From Halanaerobiales bacterium (GTDB taxonomy: Bacteria; Bacillota_F; Halanaerobiia; Halanaerobiales; DTU029), in the NCBI GenBank assembly GCA_016278415.1, contig JADQBV010000037.1, positions 1-11,988 of the forward strand: a DNA stretch of 11,988 nt. The letters are read 5' to 3'. The stretch's first letter is position 1; each line of letters starts with the position of its first letter. The notes beneath the pieces are model-generated. The model was not told the origin of the DNA. It saw nothing but the letters and a program-made list of their open reading frames with translations, and searched no databases. The position numbers were made by a program, and so were the translations under genes. This document shows, one piece after another, positions 498 to 11,988 of the stretch.

Positions 498-887
498 TCA
501 ATCAATCAACACAACCCTAGTAGTCCTATAGTCCTTAACACTATTGGCACTCTGCCATTTTACAGTCAGCTCAATAGTCTTTAATCCATTCTTTTCTTCT
601 ATATTCTTAAAATTATTATCTAAAAATCCCTCTTCTACACTCCATTGAAATGATTTCTCTAAATACTCAAAACTCCCATGACGAGCTAATTCAATACCAT
701 TAATAAGTTCATTCATCTTCCCATCTGACCAGTTCAGAACAAAATTATAATTTCTTTGATATTCTATACTATCAGTAACAATCAGATAAGCCTCAACCAG
801 AATTGATATACTAATTCCCAATATAACGAGGGCTATTAAAGTCTCCAGGAGTGTAAACCCCTCTTCACTATCGAATTTTACTAACAT
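498..887 (-). CDS. gspI: T2SS minor pseudopilin GspI
   Basis: A 129-residue protein, normal length for GspI. The leader MLVKFDSEEG is cut before FTLLETLIALVILGISISIL, with Glu at +5, and the helix is the membrane anchor before assembly. The remainder is a small globular domain ending in a TIELTVKWQS strand and TTRVVLID, similar in style to the compact GspI fold. A GGAG sequence lies about 9 nt upstream of the ATG at 887. It follows gspH by 65 nt and precedes gspJ by 42 nt, the canonical H-I-J order. In known T2SS, GspI nucleates the I-J-K tip that primes pseudopilus assembly. Family assignment is from sequence plus order; function is by homology. Confidence 0.85.
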   Translation of the reverse strand: MLVKFDSEEGFTLLETLIALVILGISISILVEAYLIVTDSIEYQRNYNFVLNWSDGKMNELINGIELARHGSFEYLEKSFQWSVEEGFLDNNFKNIEEKNGLKTIELTVKWQSANSVKDYRTTRVVLID

Positions 888-952
888 CTAAACTCACTCC
901 ACTTCTCAACTCCAACACTACTTCATAATATAAATAATTGATTCTGAAACTC

Positions 953-1384
953 TTATTTCACTAAAATTTGCTTCTCCCAATCAAGTTTCCCTGTAATAAT
1001 ATCTATATTCGCTGAATATTTATGCTTGTCCAAAATACTAATAGTAAAGGCTCCACCAGAACTTGTTCCGTCAGGATAGTAAGTGATATTATCAACACTT
1101 CTATTTACTATCTCTAAATCAAAACTAATTTCTTCTTCATTATTTATCATATATATTAGTCCAGTATTATGTATTTTAACCTCAACCTTCTGCTGTTGAC
1201 TGATACTCCTTTCTCTAATTCCACGAAAGAGATGCTCCACCCTTAACAACTGGCCTCTTGTTTCAATTGATTCCAGGTATTTTTCAAAATTTGGTAGATT
1301 TACTGTTACTAAAGCCGTAATCAAAACCAATACTATCAATACCTCCAGTAAAGTAAATCCCTCTTCATTACCAATTAGTAACAT
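953..1384 (-). CDS. gspH: T2SS minor pseudopilin GspH
   Basis: Predicted 143-residue pseudopilin. The preferred start is the ATG at 1384, giving leader MLLIGNEEG cut before FTLLEVLIVLVLITALV (Glu at +5). GAGG lies 6 nt upstream. A longer reading from GTG at 1405 is open but would run 38 nt into gspG and has a poorer leader. With the chosen start the gene overlaps the end of gspG by 17 nt, which suggests translational coupling. After the N-terminal helix comes a beta-rich C-terminal half (ITYYPDGTSSGGAFTISI is typical of the GspH/FimT domain), so the H assignment is supported by sequence and order. GspH links the tip complex to the GspG fibre in known systems. Confidence 0.87.
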   Translation of the reverse strand: MLLIGNEEGFTLLEVLIVLVLITALVTVNLPNFEKYLESIETRGQLLRVEHLFRGIRERSISQQQKVEVKIHNTGLIYMINNEEEISFDLEIVNRSVDNITYYPDGTSSGGAFTISILDKHKYSANIDIITGKLDWEKQILVK

Positions 1385-1847
1385 CAGCATCCTCGTCAGA
1401 TCCACCTTCTATACCATCTTTACCATAAGACCAGAGATCATATTTATGAGTATTGTGTGTGCCTGGAATCAGATAGTTATATTTATTTTCCCAGGGATCT
1501 AAGGGAATCTCCTTTTTATCCATATATGGTCCATCCCAATCCCTTGGCAAAGGGGGAGTGGTAGGTTCTTCTACTAAGGCATTTAATCCCTGTTGATTAC
1601 TTGGATACCTGCCGTTATCAAGACGGTAATTGTTTAAAGCAACTTTAAATATATCAATCTGATTTGCTGCAGCTGTTTGGTTTGCCTTAGATACCCTACT
1701 AAATAGCTCTGGTGCTACTACTGCTGTTAGTGCTGCAATGATGACTATCGCTATTAAGACCTCAATTAAAGTAAAACCCTTTTCCTGTTTTAATTCATTT
1801 ACAAAAGTACTATTATTTCTACATCTTTTCTTATTAAACCAGCTCAT
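1368..1847 (-). CDS. gspG: T2SS major pseudopilin GspG
   Basis: The 159-residue product has a 24-residue positively charged leader cut after Gly24, then FTLIEVLIAIVIIAALTAVVAP with Glu29 at +5. Diagnostic GspG features follow: GRYPSNQQGLNALVEEP (79-95), GPYMDKKEIPLDPWENKY (106-123), and the C-terminal YGKDGIEGGSDEDADVTNW (141-159), the calcium-binding loop that stabilises the pseudopilus. This loop separates it from type IV pilins and ComGC. AAGGAGG lies 6 nt before the ATG at 1847. A 153-nt gap separates it from gspF and contains a candidate promoter, in keeping with the large amounts needed of the major subunit. It is made as a precursor that needs a prepilin peptidase, not encoded in this window. 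Confidence 0.95.
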   Translation of the reverse strand: MSWFNKKRCRNNSTFVNELKQEKGFTLIEVLIAIVIIAALTAVVAPELFSRVSKANQTAAANQIDIFKVALNNYRLDNGRYPSNQQGLNALVEEPTTPPLPRDWDGPYMDKKEIPLDPWENKYNYLIPGTHNTHKYDLWSYGKDGIEGGSDEDADVTNW

Positions 1848-1864
1848 ATCGTGCCTCCTTGAAT

Positions 1865-1893
1865 AATATAGTTAACTCCACTTTCATAGTCAA
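1865..1893 (-). promoter_or_regulatory. Candidate sigma-70-type promoter before gspG
   Basis: Reading on the minus strand: TTGACT (1893-1888), a 17-nt spacer, then TATATT (1870-1865), each one mismatch from consensus. Predicted transcription would begin near 1858, almost at the AAGGAGG of gspG, so the 5' UTR would be very short, barely including the ribosome site. That weakens the call. A separate promoter would let the major pseudopilin be made in excess. Confidence 0.3.
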
Positions 1894-2000
1894 AACATAC
1901 GCTTAAACCCGGTTAGCCATAACTTCATAATCATTACTAATCTGCCCAGAAGAATTGCTGTGAAAGACTGACTGATAGCAGTATAATACCCGACATATAT

Positions 2001-3239
2001 CTAAATAATTGTACTAATTCGCATAACAGGAAGTAACATGGCAAATACAATAAAACCAATTATTAGCCCTACAAATAGCAAAATGAATGGTTCAAAGAGT
2101 TTTAAAAATCTATCTAAACCCTCTTTATACTCCCTGGACATTTCTTCTCCAACCTGTTGTAACATAGAACCTAATTCCCCTGTTTGTTCACCTACACCAA
2201 CTAAATAGACAGTGATATCCGGGAAGACAGCTGTACTATCTAAGGCCTGAGACAAGGGGCTACCCCTCTCCACTTTTAAAACAACTGTCTCCAGTGCCTT
2301 ATTATAGACAGAGTTTCCTGTTACTTCTCTAATAATTCTCAGTGACTTCAATAATGGAACACCATTACCAACTAAAATCCCTAACTCCCCTGTTATTCTA
2401 CTGACTGCAAGTTTCTTAAACAGCCCTCCCAGTATAGGAATTTTTAGTTTTAAACTATCAATATTGCTCTTTCCCTTTTCAGATCGAGAATAATACCAGA
2501 TTCCAATTATAAATAATAGTGAAGTTAATACTATAATCATACTATTTTGACTAATGAAGTTACTTATATTTAATAATAATAGCGTTGGTAATGGTAAACT
2601 CTTATTATACGAATCATAAATATTTATAAATTTAGGTAAGACATAAAGTAAAATTGTAATAACAGCCACTAGTGAGACCATAATTAAAATAAGCGGGTAG
2701 ATCATACTTGATATAATAAAAGAACGTAGCCGCTGAGTTTCTTCCATATCGTCAACAATTCTATTACATATTAGAGGGAGATACCCACTCTCTTCACCAG
2801 CTTTAACCATACTAATATAGGTGCTATTAAAATACTTTGGGTAGTTTTCTAGGGAATTAGCAAAACCCCTTCCTTCTCTCAATGAACTATGTATATCAAG
2901 TAAATAGTTTTTAAAAGTAGATTCTTTAAACAAGCCAATTATTACAGCAAATGCCTCATTAAGTTGAATCCCAGACTGCAGTAAATTTGCTAATTGCTTT
3001 GTGAAGATTAATACACTTTTATGTTTACTTAAGGAGAAAGCGTTAGATGCAAACTTCTGTGATATATTCTCCTTTTGATCTAACTCACCATCATCAGCCT
3101 TCTCTAGGGAGTATGGTTCTAGCCCATCCTGCTCTAATTTTTTCAGTACTTTTTGATAGTTTTCTCCACTAATACTTCCATCAACAGTATCTCCACTATG
3201 GCTAATAGCTTTGTAATTGTATATTTCCAATAATCTCAC
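2001..3239 (-). CDS. gspF: T2SS inner-membrane platform protein GspF
   Basis: The 412-residue product is the usual GspF length. It has the N-terminal YNYKAISHSGDTVDGSI opening, two T2SSF domains (about 75-198 and 277-403) with the paired motifs KAGEESG (146-152) and GVGEQTGELG (348-357), and three membrane helices near 175-200, 231-250 and 383-408. GspF is the polytopic core around which GspE drives pseudopilin insertion. The GTG at 3239 is taken as start because AGGAGGG lies just upstream, although the spacing to AGGAGG is short (4 nt). It lies 149 nt after gspE, with no terminator seen in the gap, so co-transcription with gspE is likely. Confidence 0.95.
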   Translation of the reverse strand: MRLLEIYNYKAISHSGDTVDGSISGENYQKVLKKLEQDGLEPYSLEKADDGELDQKENISQKFASNAFSLSKHKSVLIFTKQLANLLQSGIQLNEAFAVIIGLFKESTFKNYLLDIHSSLREGRGFANSLENYPKYFNSTYISMVKAGEESGYLPLICNRIVDDMEETQRLRSFIISSMIYPLILIMVSLVAVITILLYVLPKFINIYDSYNKSLPLPTLLLLNISNFISQNSMIIVLTSLLFIIGIWYYSRSEKGKSNIDSLKLKIPILGGLFKKLAVSRITGELGILVGNGVPLLKSLRIIREVTGNSVYNKALETVVLKVERGSPLSQALDSTAVFPDITVYLVGVGEQTGELGSMLQQVGEEMSREYKEGLDRFLKLFEPFILLFVGLIIGFIVFAMLLPVMRISTII

Positions 3240-3388
3240 CTACCCTCCTGATCCTAAAATCTGCATAAACATAAATAACTATAGATAATCCATATACCTC
3301 TTATATTGTAAATCTGTACCGCCTATTTCCACTTAACTGCCAATAAGAATCACAGTCAGATTAGTTGTCGGATAAAAGACCGTCAAAG

Positions 3389-4894
3389 CTAAGTTCTAGT
3401 AACCCGTATTACTTCATCAAGGCTTGTTATCCCCTGTTTTACTTTATCTATACCATCTTCATATAATGATCTTATTCCTAAATTTTTAGCAGCCTGCCTT
3501 ATTTCAGATACCTTGCTGGCACTATGTATTAATTCTTCTATTTCATTTTCCACAGTTAATAGTTCATATATCCCTTTTCTACCTGAATAACCTATCTGAT
3601 TACATTGCTCACAGCCAATCTCCCGAAAAATTCTATCCCCTTGATAAGCTAATGAAGATAAATCTAACTCACTTATAGCAGGAATATATTCTTCACGGCA
3701 ATGCTGACAAAGTACTCTAACAAGTCGCTGAGCCAGTACACCCTTTAGAGTAGCACTTAAGAGATAGTCTTCTACCCCCATATCCAGAAGACGTATAATT
3801 GCACTGGCCGCATCATTAGTATGGAGGGTAGCAAAGACAAGATGACCAGTCAAAGCTGCCTGTATGGCAATACTAGCTGTTTCACTATCCCTGATCTCCC
3901 CAATCATAATAATATCAGGGTCCTGTCTTAGTATAGAACGAAGCCCTCGTGCAAAAGTAAAGTCGATCTCTGGCTTAACCTGTATCTGATTAACCCCATA
4001 TAGTTGATATTCAACTGGGTCTTCAATGGTTATTATCTTCTTCTCTGTAGAATTTAAGTGTTCCAGAGTAGCATAAAGGGTAGTTGTTTTCCCACTACCT
4101 GTTGGACCAGTTACCAAAATAATACCATGGGAAAGACTTATCAGGTTTGAGTATTGATCTAACACATTATTATTAAATCCAAGATTATTTAAATCAAGCA
4201 AAATATCTGCTTTATCCAACAACCTTAAGACCACAGCTTCACCATAGAGTGTAGCCATAGTTGAAACCCTTATATCAAGTTCACGCCCCAGGACACGAAT
4301 TCTTATCCTACCCTCTTGAGGCAATCTTCGCTCTGCAATATTAAGCCCAGCCATAATCTTTATTCTTGTCACAATAGCAGGGAAGAGTTTCCGTGGTGGT
4401 GCAGAGTTATCAAAGAGAATACCATCAATACGATATCTAAGTTTAATAGTGTTTTCATATGGTTCTAAATGTATATCACTGGCATTTTTCTTTAGTGCCA
4501 TTGTAATAATAGCATTTACTAACTTAATAATAGGTGCTTCCTGAGCTAACTCTTCTAAATTTTCTACCCTAATGTCTAGATCAATATCAGCAAAGTCTTC
4601 AGAAACAGTATGTAAATCATCCATCATCCCCTCAACTGTATCCAGTGGAGCCTCCAGGTACTCATTAATCAATTGATTAAGTTCAATGGTAGGTATTAAT
4701 TCTACTTCAATAGGAACAGAACCATAAACCTCCAATTCATCAAGTAAGGGTAATGGTGGTTTTGCATCTGATACAAAGAATACTATACCCTCCTGTTCAT
4801 AGATAGGAACCAATCTATATTCCTTTAATCTATCCCTGGGATACTCACTTAATAAACCTATATCTATACGCTCAATTAAGTCCTGATAATTCAT
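3389..4894 (-). CDS. gspE: T2SS assembly ATPase GspE
   Basis: The 501-residue cytoplasmic ATPase powers pseudopilus assembly. The N-terminal domain (1-120) docks to GspL in known systems. The catalytic core has Walker A GPTGSGKT (263-270), an Asp box around IEDPVEYQ (290-297), Walker B DPDIIMIGEIRD (325-336) and a His box around TGHLVFATLHTNDA (349-362). Two CxxC pairs, C396/C399 and C428/C431, form the zinc-binding C-terminal subdomain characteristic of GspE and related PilB ATPases. All key residues are present. AAAGGGGGA lies 7 nt before the ATG at 4894. It follows the gspC-like gene by 125 nt and precedes gspF. The Gsp neighbourhood favours GspE over PilB. Confidence 0.95.
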   Translation of the reverse strand: MNYQDLIERIDIGLLSEYPRDRLKEYRLVPIYEQEGIVFFVSDAKPPLPLLDELEVYGSVPIEVELIPTIELNQLINEYLEAPLDTVEGMMDDLHTVSEDFADIDLDIRVENLEELAQEAPIIKLVNAIITMALKKNASDIHLEPYENTIKLRYRIDGILFDNSAPPRKLFPAIVTRIKIMAGLNIAERRLPQEGRIRIRVLGRELDIRVSTMATLYGEAVVLRLLDKADILLDLNNLGFNNNVLDQYSNLISLSHGIILVTGPTGSGKTTTLYATLEHLNSTEKKIITIEDPVEYQLYGVNQIQVKPEIDFTFARGLRSILRQDPDIIMIGEIRDSETASIAIQAALTGHLVFATLHTNDAASAIIRLLDMGVEDYLLSATLKGVLAQRLVRVLCQHCREEYIPAISELDLSSLAYQGDRIFREIGCEQCNQIGYSGRKGIYELLTVENEIEELIHSASKVSEIRQAAKNLGIRSLYEDGIDKVKQGITSLDEVIRVTRT

Positions 4895-5019
4895 AGACTA
4901 GTCCCCCTTTAATACGAGATTAATCACAATAACGTCCTTAAGATATTACGATTTTAATACACCATACAAACATATTTTAATTAAATTCTGTATCTTACCA
5001 TATAAATTATGTATATAAA

Positions 5020-5823
5020 CTAATTCTGAAATACCACATTTATTTCCTGATTGTCTTTTCCCATTACTATCTCTTTATAATCTATTCTTTTGACAATATA
5101 GCCCTCAATTTCCTGACCAGGTTTAATAAGGTATGATTTATAATTATTCCGATTTACTATTATGGCCATCTTATCTTTATCATTAATAGATACTGCTTGA
5201 AGATAGAAAGGGTTATCTAATGGTTCTACTACTTCTTCACGTAACTTTTTCTCCTCTACTTGAGGGCGATCAACTTCGACATTAGGTTTTTCAAGATTAC
5301 GGTCTTTATTTTCAGATTGTTTCTCAGATTGTTTCTCGGATTGTTTTTTAGATTTTTCTTGAATTGCCTTTTCTTCAGCTGTTTGAATTTTATCAAAATC
5401 TTCTTCTTTCAATTCATCTGCCTCTTTATGCGATTCTACACCTTTATCTACCACAGGTTTATCAATTTTCACAGTTAATCCAAATATATTCTTCTTAATA
5501 ATAAGCTGCTGGTAATCGGTAGGGAGATTATTATTAGCAAGAAATATAGAATTAAAATCAACTTGCCGTGTATCCAGCTGTGTATTAATATTTTTGCTAC
5601 TATCTACATCAATCTTTCTATCGTTAAAAACACTTGTATCCTTTGCTACATTATTACTAGCAGTATCATATCCACCTTTAATAATACCACTCTCATTTAA
5701 GTCTATACTACTGTTAAGATTAGCCTTACTCTCTGTATAAAACTGCAAGTTACTATACATATACCATAAACTAATTAATAGTAATATCGATAAAAGTATT
5801 ATTGTTTTTTTATATGACTTCAT
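5020..5823 (-). CDS. gspC: GspC/PilP-like inner-membrane linker protein of the T2SS
   Basis: The preferred start is ATG at 5823 (267 residues), 5 nt after the gspK stop, with GGAG 8 nt upstream. A GTG at 5832 would overlap gspK by 4 nt but has no room for a ribosome site. A short cytoplasmic stretch is followed by one membrane helix (about 6-25), then a periplasmic segment with KKNIFGLTV (about 110-118), a Lys/Glu-rich linker holding EKQS repeats (about 158-171), and a C-terminal beta domain (about 203-265). That domain has the pattern AVSINDKDKMAIIVN...YLIKPGQEIEGYIVKRI, typical of the HR domain of GspC and PilP that contacts the secretin. No PDZ domain is seen. The C assignment rests on architecture and position; PilP-like is the alternative. 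Confidence 0.7.
   Translation of the reverse strand: MKSYKKTIILLSILLLISLWYMYSNLQFYTESKANLNSSIDLNESGIIKGGYDTASNNVAKDTSVFNDRKIDVDSSKNINTQLDTRQVDFNSIFLANNNLPTDYQQLIIKKNIFGLTVKIDKPVVDKGVESHKEADELKEEDFDKIQTAEEKAIQEKSKKQSEKQSEKQSENKDRNLEKPNVEVDRPQVEEKKLREEVVEPLDNPFYLQAVSINDKDKMAIIVNRNNYKSYLIKPGQEIEGYIVKRIDYKEIVMGKDNQEINVVFQN
5312..5347 (-). repeat. 12-bp tandem repeat in the gspC-like gene
   Basis: Three 12-bp units on the plus strand, tcagattgtttc at 5312 and 5324 and a variant tcggattgtttt at 5336. They encode the repeated EKQS segment of the linker on the minus strand. The first two units are identical, so copy number could change by slippage without altering frame (a multiple of 3), adjusting linker length. 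Confidence 0.8.
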
Positions 5824-5828
5824 TATCT

Positions 5829-6857
5829 TCACTCCAGAAATACATCATTTTCAGACCATGATATAACTTCAATCTGCCAGTTCCCATCTTGATATTCTCT
5901 TGTGATAATACAATCTATCTCATATCTTCTTTTTTCAGCCATAACAGCACTGATGTTTAGCTTTATATATTTTGATTGGGTAGTAAATAAACCTGCAATC
6001 TCTTCAAACCTATCTTCACCAAGCAAATTTTCCAGTTCATTAATCTCACTTATCTCATTTTCTTTTCTATATGATAGGATTTGATTGGATATTGCCTGAT
6101 CTATTTCTTTACCCTTGAATATAGCATTAAGGTTATCAACACTTACCAAATTAATATTAATTCTCCCCTGTACTGTTAAAAAAGGCTTTATCTTCTGAAA
6201 AGCAGAAAAATCCAAGCCATCAATTTGGGTTGGTAATTCCTCAAGATTAGTAACCATTTCACCATCATCTCGATATTCCTTTAAACTCTCAATAATCATT
6301 TCTGAAGAAACATAATTCAAATCCAGCAAGTTAAATAATTTATGTAATTTCTCAGGAGAATCCTGATTAAGATTAAACTTACCATATGTAGTTAAACTAT
6401 CGTTAATTAAAATATCATTAGAACTATCATCCGAAATTAAATTATTTATTAGATATAATTCGGCTATTAAACTCTTTTCAATATGGGCTTCAATTTGTTC
6501 ATCCCAACCCTTAATCTCTCTTAATATAGCTAAATCCTCGTAATTTATATTTAATCTACTTCCAATATCACTTATCTTAACTAAATAACTAACACCTTCC
6601 ATGCTGCCTTCAATAGGATTTAACCAATCATCTTGACTTGAGTCATAGACTGTCTGATCATTTAATAAACTATTTATACCAATATTATAGGCAGATAAAG
6701 CAACCTCCCTGAGTTGTTTTTGCTGAGAATAACCCTCAATCAGATGACTATCTAATATCACGTCATCCAATAAATATGAAAATATAATAGTTAGAATAAC
6801 TATAGACCAGAGTACAATAATTAAGGTATAACCTTCTTCATTTTTTGTTAATACCAT
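5829..6857 (-). CDS. gspK: T2SS minor pseudopilin GspK
   Basis: A 342-residue product, the large tip pseudopilin. The leader MVLTKNEEG is cut before YTLIIVLWSIVILTIIFSYL. As usual for GspK, Glu at +5 is absent (Ile here), in contrast to H, I, J and G. A large periplasmic domain follows with GspK signatures: GSRLNINYE (near 98-106) and INLVSVDNLNAIFKG (near 235-249), the counterpart of the family's INVNTA motif, with helix-hairpin-helix-like segments. AAGGGG lies 7 nt before the ATG at 6857. It is the first gene of the operon, whereas gspK normally follows gspJ. The stop is 5 nt from the next start. GspK caps the pseudopilus and is known to control its length. Confidence 0.88.
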   Translation of the reverse strand: MVLTKNEEGYTLIIVLWSIVILTIIFSYLLDDVILDSHLIEGYSQQKQLREVALSAYNIGINSLLNDQTVYDSSQDDWLNPIEGSMEGVSYLVKISDIGSRLNINYEDLAILREIKGWDEQIEAHIEKSLIAELYLINNLISDDSSNDILINDSLTTYGKFNLNQDSPEKLHKLFNLLDLNYVSSEMIIESLKEYRDDGEMVTNLEELPTQIDGLDFSAFQKIKPFLTVQGRININLVSVDNLNAIFKGKEIDQAISNQILSYRKENEISEINELENLLGEDRFEEIAGLFTTQSKYIKLNISAVMAEKRRYEIDCIITREYQDGNWQIEVISWSENDVFLE

Positions 6858-7200: not shown

Positions 7201-8103
7201 TTAATGTTTTATTTCCTCTTTTAATAATTTAATTTTCTCTTCTGCCATCTCTGTCACTTTTACAATTTGTTTTATATCCATCCCTGCATCCAACATATTT
7301 TTAGCAATCTCTATATTTCTTTCCATTTTACCTTCATTTTTCAGTTTTTCAGCAATTGTCATTACTGCTTCACCCCTTTCAGATGATACTTCACTTACTA
7401 TCCTTGAAAGTTCTTTTGCATCTATTCCTTCTCTAGCATTCATTATATACTTTATTATTGATTCAAAATATTCCACAGCAGTCTCTTTATTATTTATTTC
7501 TTCAAGTAGATTTATTAACTTCTTTATTTCCTTTTTAAATAGTATATCGTTTACAAATATATATCGTAATATTTGTAAGATTAACTGTAGCTCTATTTCT
7601 CCTTTTATCTCTTGATCACTATATGGCGAAAAATCATATGATAAGTATTTGAAGTCTGGTATATATTCTTTAACCTCTTCAGGAATATCATCTAATATAT
7701 CAGATAATTTTAATCCTATATTCCATTTTCGTCTTCCATGATAAATTACCAAAGGAATAATCAATGGCAATTTTTTCTTCCCTTGCTTCATCTTTAAATC
7801 CCATATATTCCTCATATATTTTAACAGTTGCAAAGCAATCTTTTTAGACGGATAACTTTTATGTTCAAAAAGGAAATATAGGTATGCTTCTCTACCGTTT
7901 AAGCTTACTTTATATATGAGGTCAGAAAATACATCTTTTAGTTCTTCTTCAATCATAGAATCTTTCTCGAGTTCTATATTTTTTAGATCTATCAGGTTCA
8001 GTATTTCTAATGGCAAATAATTTTTCAGTAAACTTATGGCTATCTTTTTATCAGTCATGATTTGTTTAAAAAATTTATCGTGTACATTGTTAATATTAGA
8101 CAT
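7201..8103 (-). CDS. Rpn family recombination-promoting nuclease/putative transposase (PD-(D/E)XK)
   Basis: A 300-residue protein with the Transposase_31/Rpn layout: an opening like VHDKFFKQIM, then a PD-(D/E)XK nuclease core with VFSDLIYKV (D61) and LYFLFEHKS (E80, K82), then LPLIIPLVIYHG (112-123), a conserved strand of this family. A helical C-terminal tail (about 245-300) ends in short amphipathic repeats ending in KEEIKH. Catalytic residues appear intact and the length is usual, so it may be active. E. coli Rpn proteins are endonucleases that raise RecA-independent recombination and are linked to phage defence. GAGGT lies 7 nt before the ATG at 8103. It is monocistronic, with its own promoter and terminator. 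The role in this cell is unknown. Confidence 0.9.
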   Translation of the reverse strand: MSNINNVHDKFFKQIMTDKKIAISLLKNYLPLEILNLIDLKNIELEKDSMIEEELKDVFSDLIYKVSLNGREAYLYFLFEHKSYPSKKIALQLLKYMRNIWDLKMKQGKKKLPLIIPLVIYHGRRKWNIGLKLSDILDDIPEEVKEYIPDFKYLSYDFSPYSDQEIKGEIELQLILQILRYIFVNDILFKKEIKKLINLLEEINNKETAVEYFESIIKYIMNAREGIDAKELSRIVSEVSSERGEAVMTIAEKLKNEGKMERNIEIAKNMLDAGMDIKQIVKVTEMAEEKIKLLKEEIKH

Positions 8104-8752: not shown

Positions 8753-9040
8753 TTAATATTTACTTTTATTTTTAAAAAATACTGAAACTATCGCATTTAA
8801 CACAACAATCGAAATTAAAATAAGATTATATACAATCTTACCTTGCCAGTAGTTTATATACCAAACGATTTTAGAAACTTGAAAATATTCTCCATGATTT
8901 ACAACATAATAAATATCATCATTCATATATTGATCTGAAGCTGTACCACCTATACATGTACTAAAAATTATAAATATTATCAAATCAATCGTCCAAAAAA
9001 ATGATATGTATTTCAATGATTTAAATAATAAATTTAGCAT
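8753..9040 (-). CDS. Small two-helix membrane protein, putative Rhs immunity protein
   Basis: No named family recognised. The start chosen is ATG at 9040 (95 residues) because AGAAGGG lies 6 nt upstream; a longer reading from 9100 would overlap the rhs tail and begin with a poor, non-membrane segment. The helices are near residues 9-28 (SLKYISFFWTIDLIIFIIFS) and 68-88 (KIVYNLILISIVVLNAIVSV), with a loop of about 40 residues containing YYVVNHGEYFQVSKIVWYI, and a basic C-terminus. It starts 34 nt after the rhs stop on the same strand and the pair ends in a strong terminator, the usual position of an immunity gene. A membrane immunity protein would suit a toxin acting at the membrane or cell envelope. 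Function is inferred from position only. Confidence 0.6.
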   Translation of the reverse strand: MLNLLFKSLKYISFFWTIDLIIFIIFSTCIGGTASDQYMNDDIYYVVNHGEYFQVSKIVWYINYWQGKIVYNLILISIVVLNAIVSVFFKNKSKY

Positions 9041-9074
9041 CCTTATCCCTTCTTTGTCTGGTAGTATTATACAA

Positions 9075-9757
9075 TTATCTAACTGGATCTGTATAGTCAA
9101 TTAATTCATACCAGTCATATCTTACGCCAATACTTGGTGTGGTAGATACTGTAATTCCTGTACTCGATACTAACTTACCTTCTGAATACCAACGTGCATG
9201 TTCAACTCCATAAATTAAATTAGCACTTCCAGATACAAATGAACCTGAGAAATCTTTTGGTTTATCTGCATTACTAACAATTCCAATTGAATAAGATAGA
9301 GAAAAACTTGGAGCACCAATAATATCAATTGGCGTGATTGAATATCCAGGTCCAACATGTATATACCTAGCATTCTCATAGTTTTCATTTCCTGTTAACG
9401 TAGTTTTACCAATTGCTATATCAGCTTGACCAGTTATAGGATCAGGAAATGTAATTGTTATATCTGTATATATATTATGATTATCTACCCATTCAACGGC
9501 CTGATATCCAATATAGCTAGCTGCGTCTTCAGTTGAATCTCCCATATACCCCTTTATATTCTCTTGTGTACGATAATTTGTATGATTATCTGCAACTTCT
9601 TTTGTATCTTCACTTATTGACCAATCTATTTCATCAATATTTGGGGTTTCTTCTTGAATACTTTTAGTTATATAACTACCAATACCTCGTAAAAATCCTT
9701 TAAATACATCAATGATATCCTCAAAAATATGCCCCGTAGGATCCACATACCTCATCG
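9075..9757 (-). pseudogene. Rhs gene, 3' exon: end of core and variable C-terminal tail
   Basis: Begins in mid-codon after the intron, giving MRYVDPTGH, the universal end of the Rhs core, followed by about 218 residues of variable tail. The first part of the tail (IFEDIIDVFKGFLRGIGSYI) looks like a linker helix. The rest is rich in Gly, Ser, Thr and beta strands (ITITFPDPITGQADIAIG, SFSLSYSIGIVSNADKP, STTPSIGVRYDWYELIDY). I see no HNH, ADP-ribosyltransferase, deaminase or other known toxin motif. In Rhs proteins this tail is released inside the shell and is usually a toxin. ATG at 9755 is not a real start because it has no ribosome site and sits inside a conserved motif. The upstream part has a frame break, so the gene may be inactive. 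Confidence 0.8.
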
Positions 9758-9813
9758 GTCGGGTCGGTCACTGGCGCGTTAGCAAGAGCCACGTCTCCAG
9801 ATTCCGCCACGAA

Positions 9814-9846
9814 GAACCGTACGTGAAGTTTTCCCTCATACGGCTC
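9814..9846 (-). ncRNA. Group II intron domain V
   Basis: Minus-strand hairpin beginning GAGCCGTATGAGGG and closing with CACGTACGGTTC, arms GAGCCGTA.G/C.TACGGTTC with a GAAA-type loop. It carries the catalytic AGC triad and has the standard length of about 34 nt. It lies 36 nt after the reverse transcriptase stop and 56 nt before the 3' splice site, leaving room for a domain VI stem. Confidence 0.93.
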
Positions 9847-9882
9847 AATTAACATACTTCTTATTACAGTTTATGATTCCTA

Positions 9883-11166
9883 TTAAGCTGGTTTCACTTT
9901 CGGGTTGTAATATCTGACCTGATAGTCGTTATATAGACCCCATTTATCATATATTACTTCCTTACTCCATTCTTTCCAGCCAAAGCCCTTACGTCCCTGG
10001 CGTTTCCTCACGAAGCGTCTAACTTTCTTCTCTATCCAATCTTTTAGAAAAGAAAATAATTTTCCACAATGGCCTATACGATAATAGTTAACCCATCCGC
10101 GTATTATTTCATTCAAATCCCAGATAACCATCTCTTTGGGCTTATCACCACTTCTTTTAAGACAGTTTCTGACCTTATCTATTAGCTCTTTTACTTTTTT
10201 CTTCCGCGGTCTTATCAATACCATATTTCTCCCACTTTTGTTGTCAGTAAGTCTAAAGGTAAATCCAAGAAAGCTGAATGTTTCTCCTTTTCGTAGGTCA
10301 ACTGTACAGCTTTTAGTTTCATTTATCTTTACTTTAAGCTTAGATAATTCTTCTTTCAGTCTTCTCCAGGCTTTACCTACCAACCACTCAAGAGCCTTAT
10401 GGCCATTAACTAATATCACCATGTCATCTGCAAAACGACAGTACTCTATTTGCTGGTATCCTTTATGTTCAGTGTCCTGGACAGCATTCTTAAACATATG
10501 GTCTATTCTATTTAGATATATGTTACTAAATAATGGTGATATTACGCCCCCTTGGGACACTCCAACCTTACCATTAGCCTTTAGAGTTATCTTTACTAAC
10601 CACATTATCTTTGGGTCATTTATTCTTCTTGCTATTTGTTGCAATAGAATATGATGTTTGATATTATCAAAGTAGGATGTAAGGTCAACATCTATTACTG
10701 TCGTCAGTCTTTTCAATGGTGCTTTAGCTACTTTTACAACAGCGCCATGCTGATTTCTCTTTGGTCTATATCCATAAGAGTTATCGGCAAAGTCTGCTTC
10801 AAAGACAGCTTCCAGTATTAATTTTAATGCTCCCTGTACTACCCTATCTTTAATGGTTGGAATTCCTAATACCCTTATTTTACCATTAGATTTAGGAATC
10901 TCCTGCGGACGATTTCGTTGTGGTCTATATGTTCCATCTTCTAATTCCTGTTTTATTTCAGCTATGAATTGTTTTACTCCTCTTTCTTCTACATCTTTAA
11001 ATGTCACTCCATCTATACCGGCAGAACCATTATTTTGTTTTGCCATTATGTACGCTTCATAAAGTGTTTCTTCTTTTGTGACATGACAATACATGCCCCA
11101 GAAACGTTTGCGCTTATCGGATTTCGCTGCAATATATATCTTTCTCCTCAGTTCCTGTAATTTCAT
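9883..11166 (-). CDS. ltrA: Group II intron reverse transcriptase/maturase
   Basis: The 427-residue product starts at ATG 11166 (MKLQELRRKIY); an in-frame GTG at 11187 would add seven residues, and the ATG has AGGA 7 nt upstream and a conserved family start. Reverse transcriptase blocks include NNGSAGIDGVTF, RVLGIPTIKDRVVQGAL, VIDVDLTSYFDNI (catalytic D159, D161), QGGVISPLFSNIYL and CRFADDMVILV (catalytic DD at 247-248). The maturase/X domain has FSFLGFTF, IIRGWVNYYR (about 354-363). There is no HNH endonuclease zinc region at the C-terminus, so it probably relies on nicks or replication forks for target priming. It helps the intron fold and splice and copies it into DNA. The catalytic residues are intact. 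Confidence 0.95.
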   Translation of the reverse strand: MKLQELRRKIYIAAKSDKRKRFWGMYCHVTKEETLYEAYIMAKQNNGSAGIDGVTFKDVEERGVKQFIAEIKQELEDGTYRPQRNRPQEIPKSNGKIRVLGIPTIKDRVVQGALKLILEAVFEADFADNSYGYRPKRNQHGAVVKVAKAPLKRLTTVIDVDLTSYFDNIKHHILLQQIARRINDPKIMWLVKITLKANGKVGVSQGGVISPLFSNIYLNRIDHMFKNAVQDTEHKGYQQIEYCRFADDMVILVNGHKALEWLVGKAWRRLKEELSKLKVKINETKSCTVDLRKGETFSFLGFTFRLTDNKSGRNMVLIRPRKKKVKELIDKVRNCLKRSGDKPKEMVIWDLNEIIRGWVNYYRIGHCGKLFSFLKDWIEKKVRRFVRKRQGRKGFGWKEWSKEVIYDKWGLYNDYQVRYYNPKVKPA

Positions 11167-11463
11167 AGTGGTTCCTGTCCTCCCCACTTTACCTCACAAT
11201 TTTGTTGAAAGATTGTATACTAATTAGGTCCCTTCCCTACTTCGAAGTTCTGTTTCTTCGATATCATCAGTAATACAGACCTTTCCGACTTCCTCTTACC
11301 TTCCGATAATTTTCCCGGAGACACTCTGGTTATATTACCTTCCTGCTCTACTGATTTCTCATATAGGGTAAGTAGGATATCTCCAGTTGCTTTCTCGTGA
11401 CTTTCTATCCATACCGCCACTGCTACCCCGCCGAAGTTATTCCACCTATGGTAGGTGTTGTGA

Positions 11464-11470
11464 AATAATC
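11464..11470 (-). other. EBS1 of the group II intron (pairs with 5' exon)
   Basis: Minus-strand GATTATT, about 236 nt into the intron, is perfectly complementary to the last seven exon bases AATAATC (11712-11706). This supports the 5' splice site and shows how the intron recognises the rhs target. A weaker EBS2 candidate AACATA (11538-11533) matches TATGTT in the exon at 11721-11716, slightly farther from the splice site than is usual. Confidence 0.65.
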
Positions 11471-11705
11471 CTGTCTTCGCCCAATAACCAGAGGCTCGAC
11501 CCTCGGGATTAGCTTCATTTCGGAGCTACATATATGTTCATTTCATTACAGCCTGGATAGTCGCTCACCCGGCTTGTACCGGATTTTAACGATGGGCTTC
11601 AGTATTTTGATTACTCGCCATACTGCCATCTTCACTAAGCAACTTCTACCTTTTATTGCTGTCAGACCTTCCCTGACTAGCTACGAGCGCCTTATCTGGG
11701 CACGC

Positions 11706-11988
11706 GATTATTCATAACATAAATGTAGATATTTTGGCTCTGCGGATTATCCAACTCTCCTAGATAAGTATCCTCAGTAATAAATCTACCAATCGACGGG
11801 TCGTAATACCTGGCTCCATAGTAATACAAGCCTATAGACACAACTTCCCGCTGACCGGTATACTTATATCCCCCAGCTTCTTCATCCACAATCTCAGTCT
11901 GTCCAATCCTTGGTAGAACCACCAAATGGCATGTAATCCTGATCCATTATTACTTTACTATCTTGATCAGTAATCAATCTGGTTGAAC
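11706..11988 (-). pseudogene. Rhs gene, end of 5' exon with frameshift (partial, 5' end beyond window)
   Basis: Reading from the window edge, one frame gives TRLITDQDSKVIMDQDYMPFGG (split: TRLITDQDSKV then IMDQDYMPFGG), typical Rhs text, then goes off to a stop at 11896-11894. The match resumes one frame over as LPRIGQTEIVDEEAGGYKY, then YTGQ, YYYGARYYDPSIGRFITED and QSQNIYIYVMNN. Homologues typically read PFGGDLPR, which would fit a two-base loss near 11916-11920. Unless this is a sequencing error, the full-length Rhs protein is not made. No ribosome site marks a restart. The Rhs shell repeats lie outside the window. The intron begins after AATAATC. Confidence 0.85.

What the first reader, a model, noticed from the sequence alone, without database searches (positions are those of the whole stretch)
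9750..11720. Group II intron sits exactly in the conserved Rhs core motif and splicing would restore NNP-MRYVDPTGH
The intron interrupts the Pro codon of the near-universal NNP-x-RYVDPTGH motif on the same strand. A 7-nt EBS1 (11470-11464) matches the exon end AATAATC. Because this DNA stretch is conserved between Rhs copies, the intron could spread among rhs loci while the host gene remains expressible, or splicing could gate toxin production. The 5' end GCGTGCCC departs from the usual GTGYG.
Basis: partly seen in the sequence, partly recalled or inferred. Interest (0 to 1): 0.7.

Follow-up and report, generated by a model that had tools for sequence, protein, structure and literature searches.

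The report
Mobile intron homing to rhs genes
A self-splicing mobile intron sits in the DNA of a conserved Asn-Asn-Pro motif of an rhs toxin-family gene, and close relatives sit at the same spot in other rhs genes, so the motif looks like a recurrent landing site; the host genes seen here look broken or silent, so a role in controlling a toxin is not supported.

Summary
The intron is real: 1,948 nt, window 11705-9758 (-), with an intact 434-aa reverse transcriptase/maturase and Rfam matches to domain I and domains V/VI. It splits the Pro codon of the rhs-core NNP motif in phase 1. The two UBA5388 introns are 98.1% identical over 480 nt, their exon-1 flanks 71.6%, so they moved separately from the exons.

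Not supported: an expressible host gene or a toxin gate. The window rhs frame breaks upstream of the intron, and both UBA5388 copies lie in orphan modules with stops. Rhs is not the only target: a relative uses the same 7-mer in a PKD-domain gene. The GCGTG start also occurs in a relative. New target, known kind of element; splicing is untested.

The parts
9758..11705 (-). group II intron, 1,948 nt, 5' GCGTG, 3' GAC
   Evidence: boundaries agree with those of L001 and L010
9883..11187 (-). intron-encoded protein, 434 aa, RT plus maturase domain, no endonuclease domain hit
11541..11679 (-). domain I part, RF02003
   Evidence: 99.4 bits
11483..11489 (-). EBS1, GGTTATT (intron nt 217-223)
   Evidence: same column pairs in 9 of 9 introns; inside a predicted loop, whose fold energy is not better than shuffles (z 0.10)
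11706..11712 (-). IBS1, AATAATC, end of exon 1
9758..9848 (-). domains V and VI, RF00029
   Evidence: 47.3 bits; fold z -3.85
9764..9764 (-). putative branch-point A, unpaired in the predicted D6 fold, 7th base from the 3' end
   Evidence: role inferred
11706..11988 (-). rhs core part before the intron, cut by the window edge
   Evidence: TIGR03696 positions 9-68 of 76
9075..9757 (-). rhs part after the intron: end of the core motif and a 226-aa open frame with no Pfam or NCBIfam hit at 1e-3
11915..11930 (-). approximate place where the rhs reading frame changes
   Evidence: assembly error not excluded

Best explanation
This is a potentially active group II retro-intron without endonuclease domain. 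Its RNA guide EBS1 (11489-11483) pairs with AAYAAYC, the DNA of Asn-Asn and the first base of Pro in the Rhs core, and the intron enters between the first and second base of the Pro codon. By the genetic code every NNP site reads AAYAAYCC. In the L001/L010 intron the guide (GGTTGTT) has G opposite both variable Y positions, so G-C or G.U pairing accepts any codon choice; in the window the first of these positions is A, so its guide fits AAT-AAY best. The multicopy rhs family thus offers a recurrent target. Shown by sequence: anatomy, phase, EBS1-IBS1 covariation, recurrence at rhs sites, movement independent of the exons in one genome. Inferred: reverse splicing/retrohoming as the route, and accurate splicing. 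Since the hosts seen are broken or orphan rhs copies, the insertion is most likely a low-cost landing place, not a toxin switch.
For: Rfam and protein domains. Same codon position in L001 and L010. P0131, P0132 and P0133 read NN-RVPRQGAYS, NN-RVP and NN-RVLSQGTHS; P0134 reads as L010. EBS1 column pairs in 9 of 9 introns with 6 different IBS1 sequences, next best 1 of 9; window T-A is C-G in L001. L001/L010 introns 471 of 480 identical at the 5' end and 100 of 100 at the 3' end, exon-1 flanks 68 of 95. In G001 four rhs sites are uninterrupted NNP against two with the intron. Both G001 copies were found through the intron, not through rhs, though G001 has 839 AAYAAYCC places in all.
Against: Of 4 copies found with intron DNA in 398 genomes only 2 are in rhs, both in one genome. 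The G309 copy uses AACAATC in a PKD-domain gene in another frame, while all 25 rhs core matches of G309 run to profile position 74-76, so none looks interrupted. P0131-P0133 came from an rhs query and the window from a reader who noted rhs, so they are biased; their DNA was not seen. The L001 IEP is broken and that of L010 mostly missing. No EBS2 signal. No splicing or mobility data.
Confidence: 0.72

Rival explanations
1. The intron is a generalist that enters any accessible AAYAAYC site; rhs copies are hit because they are many, conserved and harmless to hit, with no specialisation on rhs.
For: G309 copy at the same 7-mer outside rhs; G172 remnant not in a recognised rhs; other guides of the wider family match quite different targets.
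Against: Both G001 copies are in rhs although the four uninterrupted rhs NNP sites are under 1% of its 839 AAYAAYCC places (backward-pattern control 583).
Confidence: 0.22
2. Splicing rebuilds a working Rhs protein and so permits or gates toxin production.
For: Phase 1 and matching sides in 3 of 3 DNA-level rhs copies; intact IEP in the window.
Against: The window rhs frame changes upstream near 11915-11930; L001 and L010 modules have stops just upstream of the rhs fragment.
Confidence: 0.05
3. The shared position is inherited: an rhs module that already held the intron was copied and its ends diverged.
For: One genome holds two copies.
Against: Introns 98.1% identical but exon-1 flanks 71.6%, and L010's flank is closer to an uninterrupted module (L025, 80.0%).
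Confidence: 0.05

Closest known systems
E. coli introns E.c.I2 and E.c.I9 (PMC3522654, passages seen)
   Same: Group II introns said there to target one repeated family of mobile DNA ('Rsh IS', ISEc1-5) at fixed positions, leaving most sites free.
   Different: The target is an insertion sequence, not the rhs core coding motif. That this IS is linked to rhs elements is my recollection.
RF02003-type introns of G178, G109, G118 and G207
   Same: Same Rfam domain I model and same EBS1 column.
   Different: IEP 39-58% identical in the matched parts; IBS1 is GGACGTT, GGTTAAG or CTGAGGG; no rhs motif seen by eye in the flanks.
Group IIB introns with attC-like arrays (PMC7923331, passages seen)
   Same: EBS1-guided entry; endonuclease-less class E members are described there.
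   Different: The targets there are integron cassettes. The passages give 6-bp EBS2-IBS2 pairing for IIA/IIB; no EBS2 was detected here.

Membership tests
Bacterial group II intron | domain V/VI and domain I RNA | tested here: met
   RF00029 47.3 bits, RF02003 99.4 bits
Bacterial group II intron | RT/maturase encoded inside | tested here: met
Bacterial group II intron | EBS1-IBS1 pairing with covariation | tested here: met
   9 of 9 at one column
Bacterial group II intron | 5' GTGYG | tested here: not met
   GCGTG; C at position 2 in 3 of the 9 introns (window, L018, L014), so a family variant and not a bar to membership
Bacterial group II intron | 3' end AY | tested here: met
   ends GAC
Bacterial group II intron | splicing | not testable with these tools
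   needs RNA
Group IIA/IIB intron | EBS2-IBS2 pairing | tested here: inconclusive
   no column above permuted exons
Named ORF class (C, D, E, F, g1-g4) | place in the IEP tree | not tested
   no reference set at hand; PMC3552965 passages only
Rhs gene as host | Rhs core match | tested here: met
   TIGR03696 56.6 bits, cut-off 32.5
Working rhs gene as host | one open frame through the core | tested here: not met
   frame changes near 11915-11930; assembly error not excluded

The most novel reading that the evidence does not exclude
A lineage of group II introns has specialised on the rhs polymorphic toxin family by evolving a guide that in effect reads a protein motif: seven bases of EBS1 cover Asn-Asn and the first base of Pro, with G opposite both synonymous positions, so any codon choice at any rhs NNP site can be entered in the same phase.
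Probability: 0.33. Interest if true: 0.68.

Novelty: new member of a known kind. Interest (0 to 1): 0.5.

Why it matters
If it holds, the variable rhs toxin family is a recurrent landing place for group II introns, at a motif whose DNA can vary only at two bases without changing the protein: a simple way for an RNA guide to keep its target across species. It also gives a covariation-supported EBS1 for this RF02003-type lineage, useful for predicting targets, and tells annotators that rhs proteins ending in NNRVPR-like tails are probably cut by an intron.

Tried and rejected

Viral contigs: no stretch with the single protein; 61 pattern stretches with alignment A1 (24 IEPs), none confirmed; 5 junction-pattern hits L002-L006 show no intron after the motif. 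Genomes: IEP at E 1e-60 in 9 of 299 phylum genomes and 2 of 61 relatives; junction pattern in 3 of 398, of which the G404 hit lies in an unrelated open frame; intron DNA in 3 of 398 and 2 of 29.

EBS2: no signal over permuted exon labels. Papers: searches listed no paper on a group II intron in the rhs core, judged from titles and abstract starts; one search listed 25 of 95 and 15 of 23; the library is open-access PMC. PMC4487195 (passages) mentions an rhs-like chloroplast ORF with a 267-bp intron in Bryopsis hypnoides; not compared.

Rows dropped: one search got 27 rhs loci and parsed 17 distinct sites (11 NNP, 3 NDP, 2 GNP, 1 SNP); the rest were not parsed or were repeats. One search used 9 introns; left out were L012 and L021b (one tandem place whose 'exon' is the end of another copy; both fail), L015, L016, L017, L019 and L030 (more distant or cut), G309 (contig edge) and L057 (guide region missing). 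The L001 identity of 75% is the best tblastn segment; the pieces show 57-61%. Script faults: one search gave blanks for five introns through a naming slip, searches used too narrow a pattern; replace them.

Full report
What is there. On the minus strand lies a group II intron from 11705 to 9758 (1,948 nt). Rfam finds part of domain I (RF02003, 99.4 bits) and domains V/VI (RF00029, 47.3 bits), both over their gathering scores. It holds an open 434-aa frame with reverse transcriptase and maturase domains and no endonuclease hit. Before it the sequence matches the Rhs core (TIGR03696, positions 9-68 of 76) and stops at Asn-Asn plus one base; after it come two bases and codons reading MRYVDPTGH. 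The intron is in phase 1 of the Pro codon of NNP. In the predicted D6 fold the A at 9764, seventh from the 3' end, is unpaired, a fitting branch point.

Is the position special? The single confirmed relative in genome contigs (L001, Firmicutes bacterium UBA5388; 75% in the best segment; 1 of 19 pattern stretches) has its intron after AACAATC, and after it a base pair of two and codons reading LRFVDPSG. A second copy in that genome (L010, G001 contig 59) follows AATAACC in another rhs module. G001 has 7 rhs core matches: L027 and L028 carry the intron, L023, L024, L025 and L026 are uninterrupted NNP, L029 is partial. The two introns agree at 471 of 480 bases at the 5' end and 100 of 100 at the 3' end; their exon-1 flanks agree at 68 of 95, and L010's flank is nearer an uninterrupted module (L025, 76 of 95). 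So the intron moved separately from its surroundings.

More insertions. A search with the L001 reading, rhs running into the intron, gave 4 proteins. P0134 reads as L010. P0131, P0132 and P0133 end NN-RVPRQGAYS, NN-RVP and NN-RVLSQGTHS, against NN-RVPRKGTHS in L001 and L010. I take them as three further insertions at the same place; this is inference from protein, and P0132 simply ends there. A search with the window's own rhs piece gave 9 proteins: P0121 is the window's, 5 read through an uninterrupted NNP (P0122, P0123, P0124, P0126, P0128), two have QNP or GNP (P0125, P0129) and one ends earlier (P0127).

How the site is recognised. Nine introns with six different IBS1 sequences were aligned. 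At one column all nine can pair six bases with the end of their own exon; the next best column pairs in one. With seven bases, 9 of 11 rows pair at 6 or 7 positions; the two misses are one tandem place. In the window this guide is GGTTATT, 11489-11483, in a predicted loop (the fold is not more stable than shuffles, z 0.10). From window to L001 a T-A pair becomes C-G. In the L001/L010 intron the guide GGTTGTT puts G opposite both third codon bases, and its two sites differ exactly there. Of 17 rhs sites parsed from 27 loci of G001 and G309, 11 are NNP and all 11 fit AAYAAYC, as the code demands. No EBS2 was detected.

Results against a strong reading. A G309 copy (92% identical over 126 nt at a contig edge) follows AACAATC too, but in a PKD-domain gene and in a frame reading K-Q-S; all 25 rhs core matches of G309 run to position 74-76. 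A remnant in G172, without the guide region, follows other DNA. So of 4 places found by intron DNA in 398 genomes, 2 are in rhs, both in G001. G001 has 839 AAYAAYCC places (backward control 583) and G309 1,129 (control 707): the short guide alone does not explain why both G001 copies are in rhs. Other contacts, or selection for harmless places, may add to it. The window's guide has A opposite the first variable base and so fits AAT-AAY best.

Is the host gene working? As far as can be seen, no. In the window the frame changes between about 11930 and 11915, with likeness to relatives on both sides; an assembly error is possible. In G001 both invaded modules have stops just upstream of the rhs fragment. 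The L001 IEP is broken and that of L010 is mostly gone. That splicing restores or gates a toxin is untested and unsupported.

The 5' end. GCGTG also starts L018, and L014 starts GCATG: C at position 2 in 3 of the 9 introns. Its effect on splicing is unknown.

Verdict. A known kind of element with a target that I did not find in print. The nearest case seen is E.c.I2/E.c.I9 at ISEc1-5 (PMC3522654, passages). The host may be one of the Halanaerobiales, as the best named rhs relative (P0122, 83%) is labelled so; this is weak.

Noticed in passing
L024, L025, L026, L027, L028 (G001); L001:871-1482; L027:1208-1507: Five orphan rhs C-terminal modules start with a shared stretch holding CTAGT.CCA..TAGTTAACGCT..GTGGTATGA (partly palindromic, 4 of 5 with a longer shared leader; L024 is masked), run straight into the NARWYD codons; a phage-integrase-family gene lies upstream in L001 and a fragment that looks alike in L027. 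This may be a recombination site that swaps rhs ends.
   Followed up: partly
G178 contig 1, about 1471404-1480962 (L012, L020, L021): Related introns after GGACGTT targets, with two copies head to tail, one directly after the 3' end of the other.
   Followed up: partly
L018 (G207): A related intron with a GCGTG start lies shortly after a hairpin-like GGCAGCGCC...GGCGCTGCC sequence, as terminator-targeting introns do (by eye).
   Followed up: no
window 498-6857 (-): A type II secretion or pilus-like gene cluster; T2SSE, T2SSF and T2SSG domains confirmed in three of its genes.
   Followed up: partly
window 7201-8103 (-): YhgA-like Transposase_31 / Rpn-family nuclease gene beside the rhs locus.
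   Followed up: no
window 8753-9100 (-): 115-aa frame overlapping the end of the rhs frame, with hydrophobic stretches and no Pfam or NCBIfam hit; by position alone a candidate immunity gene.
   Followed up: no
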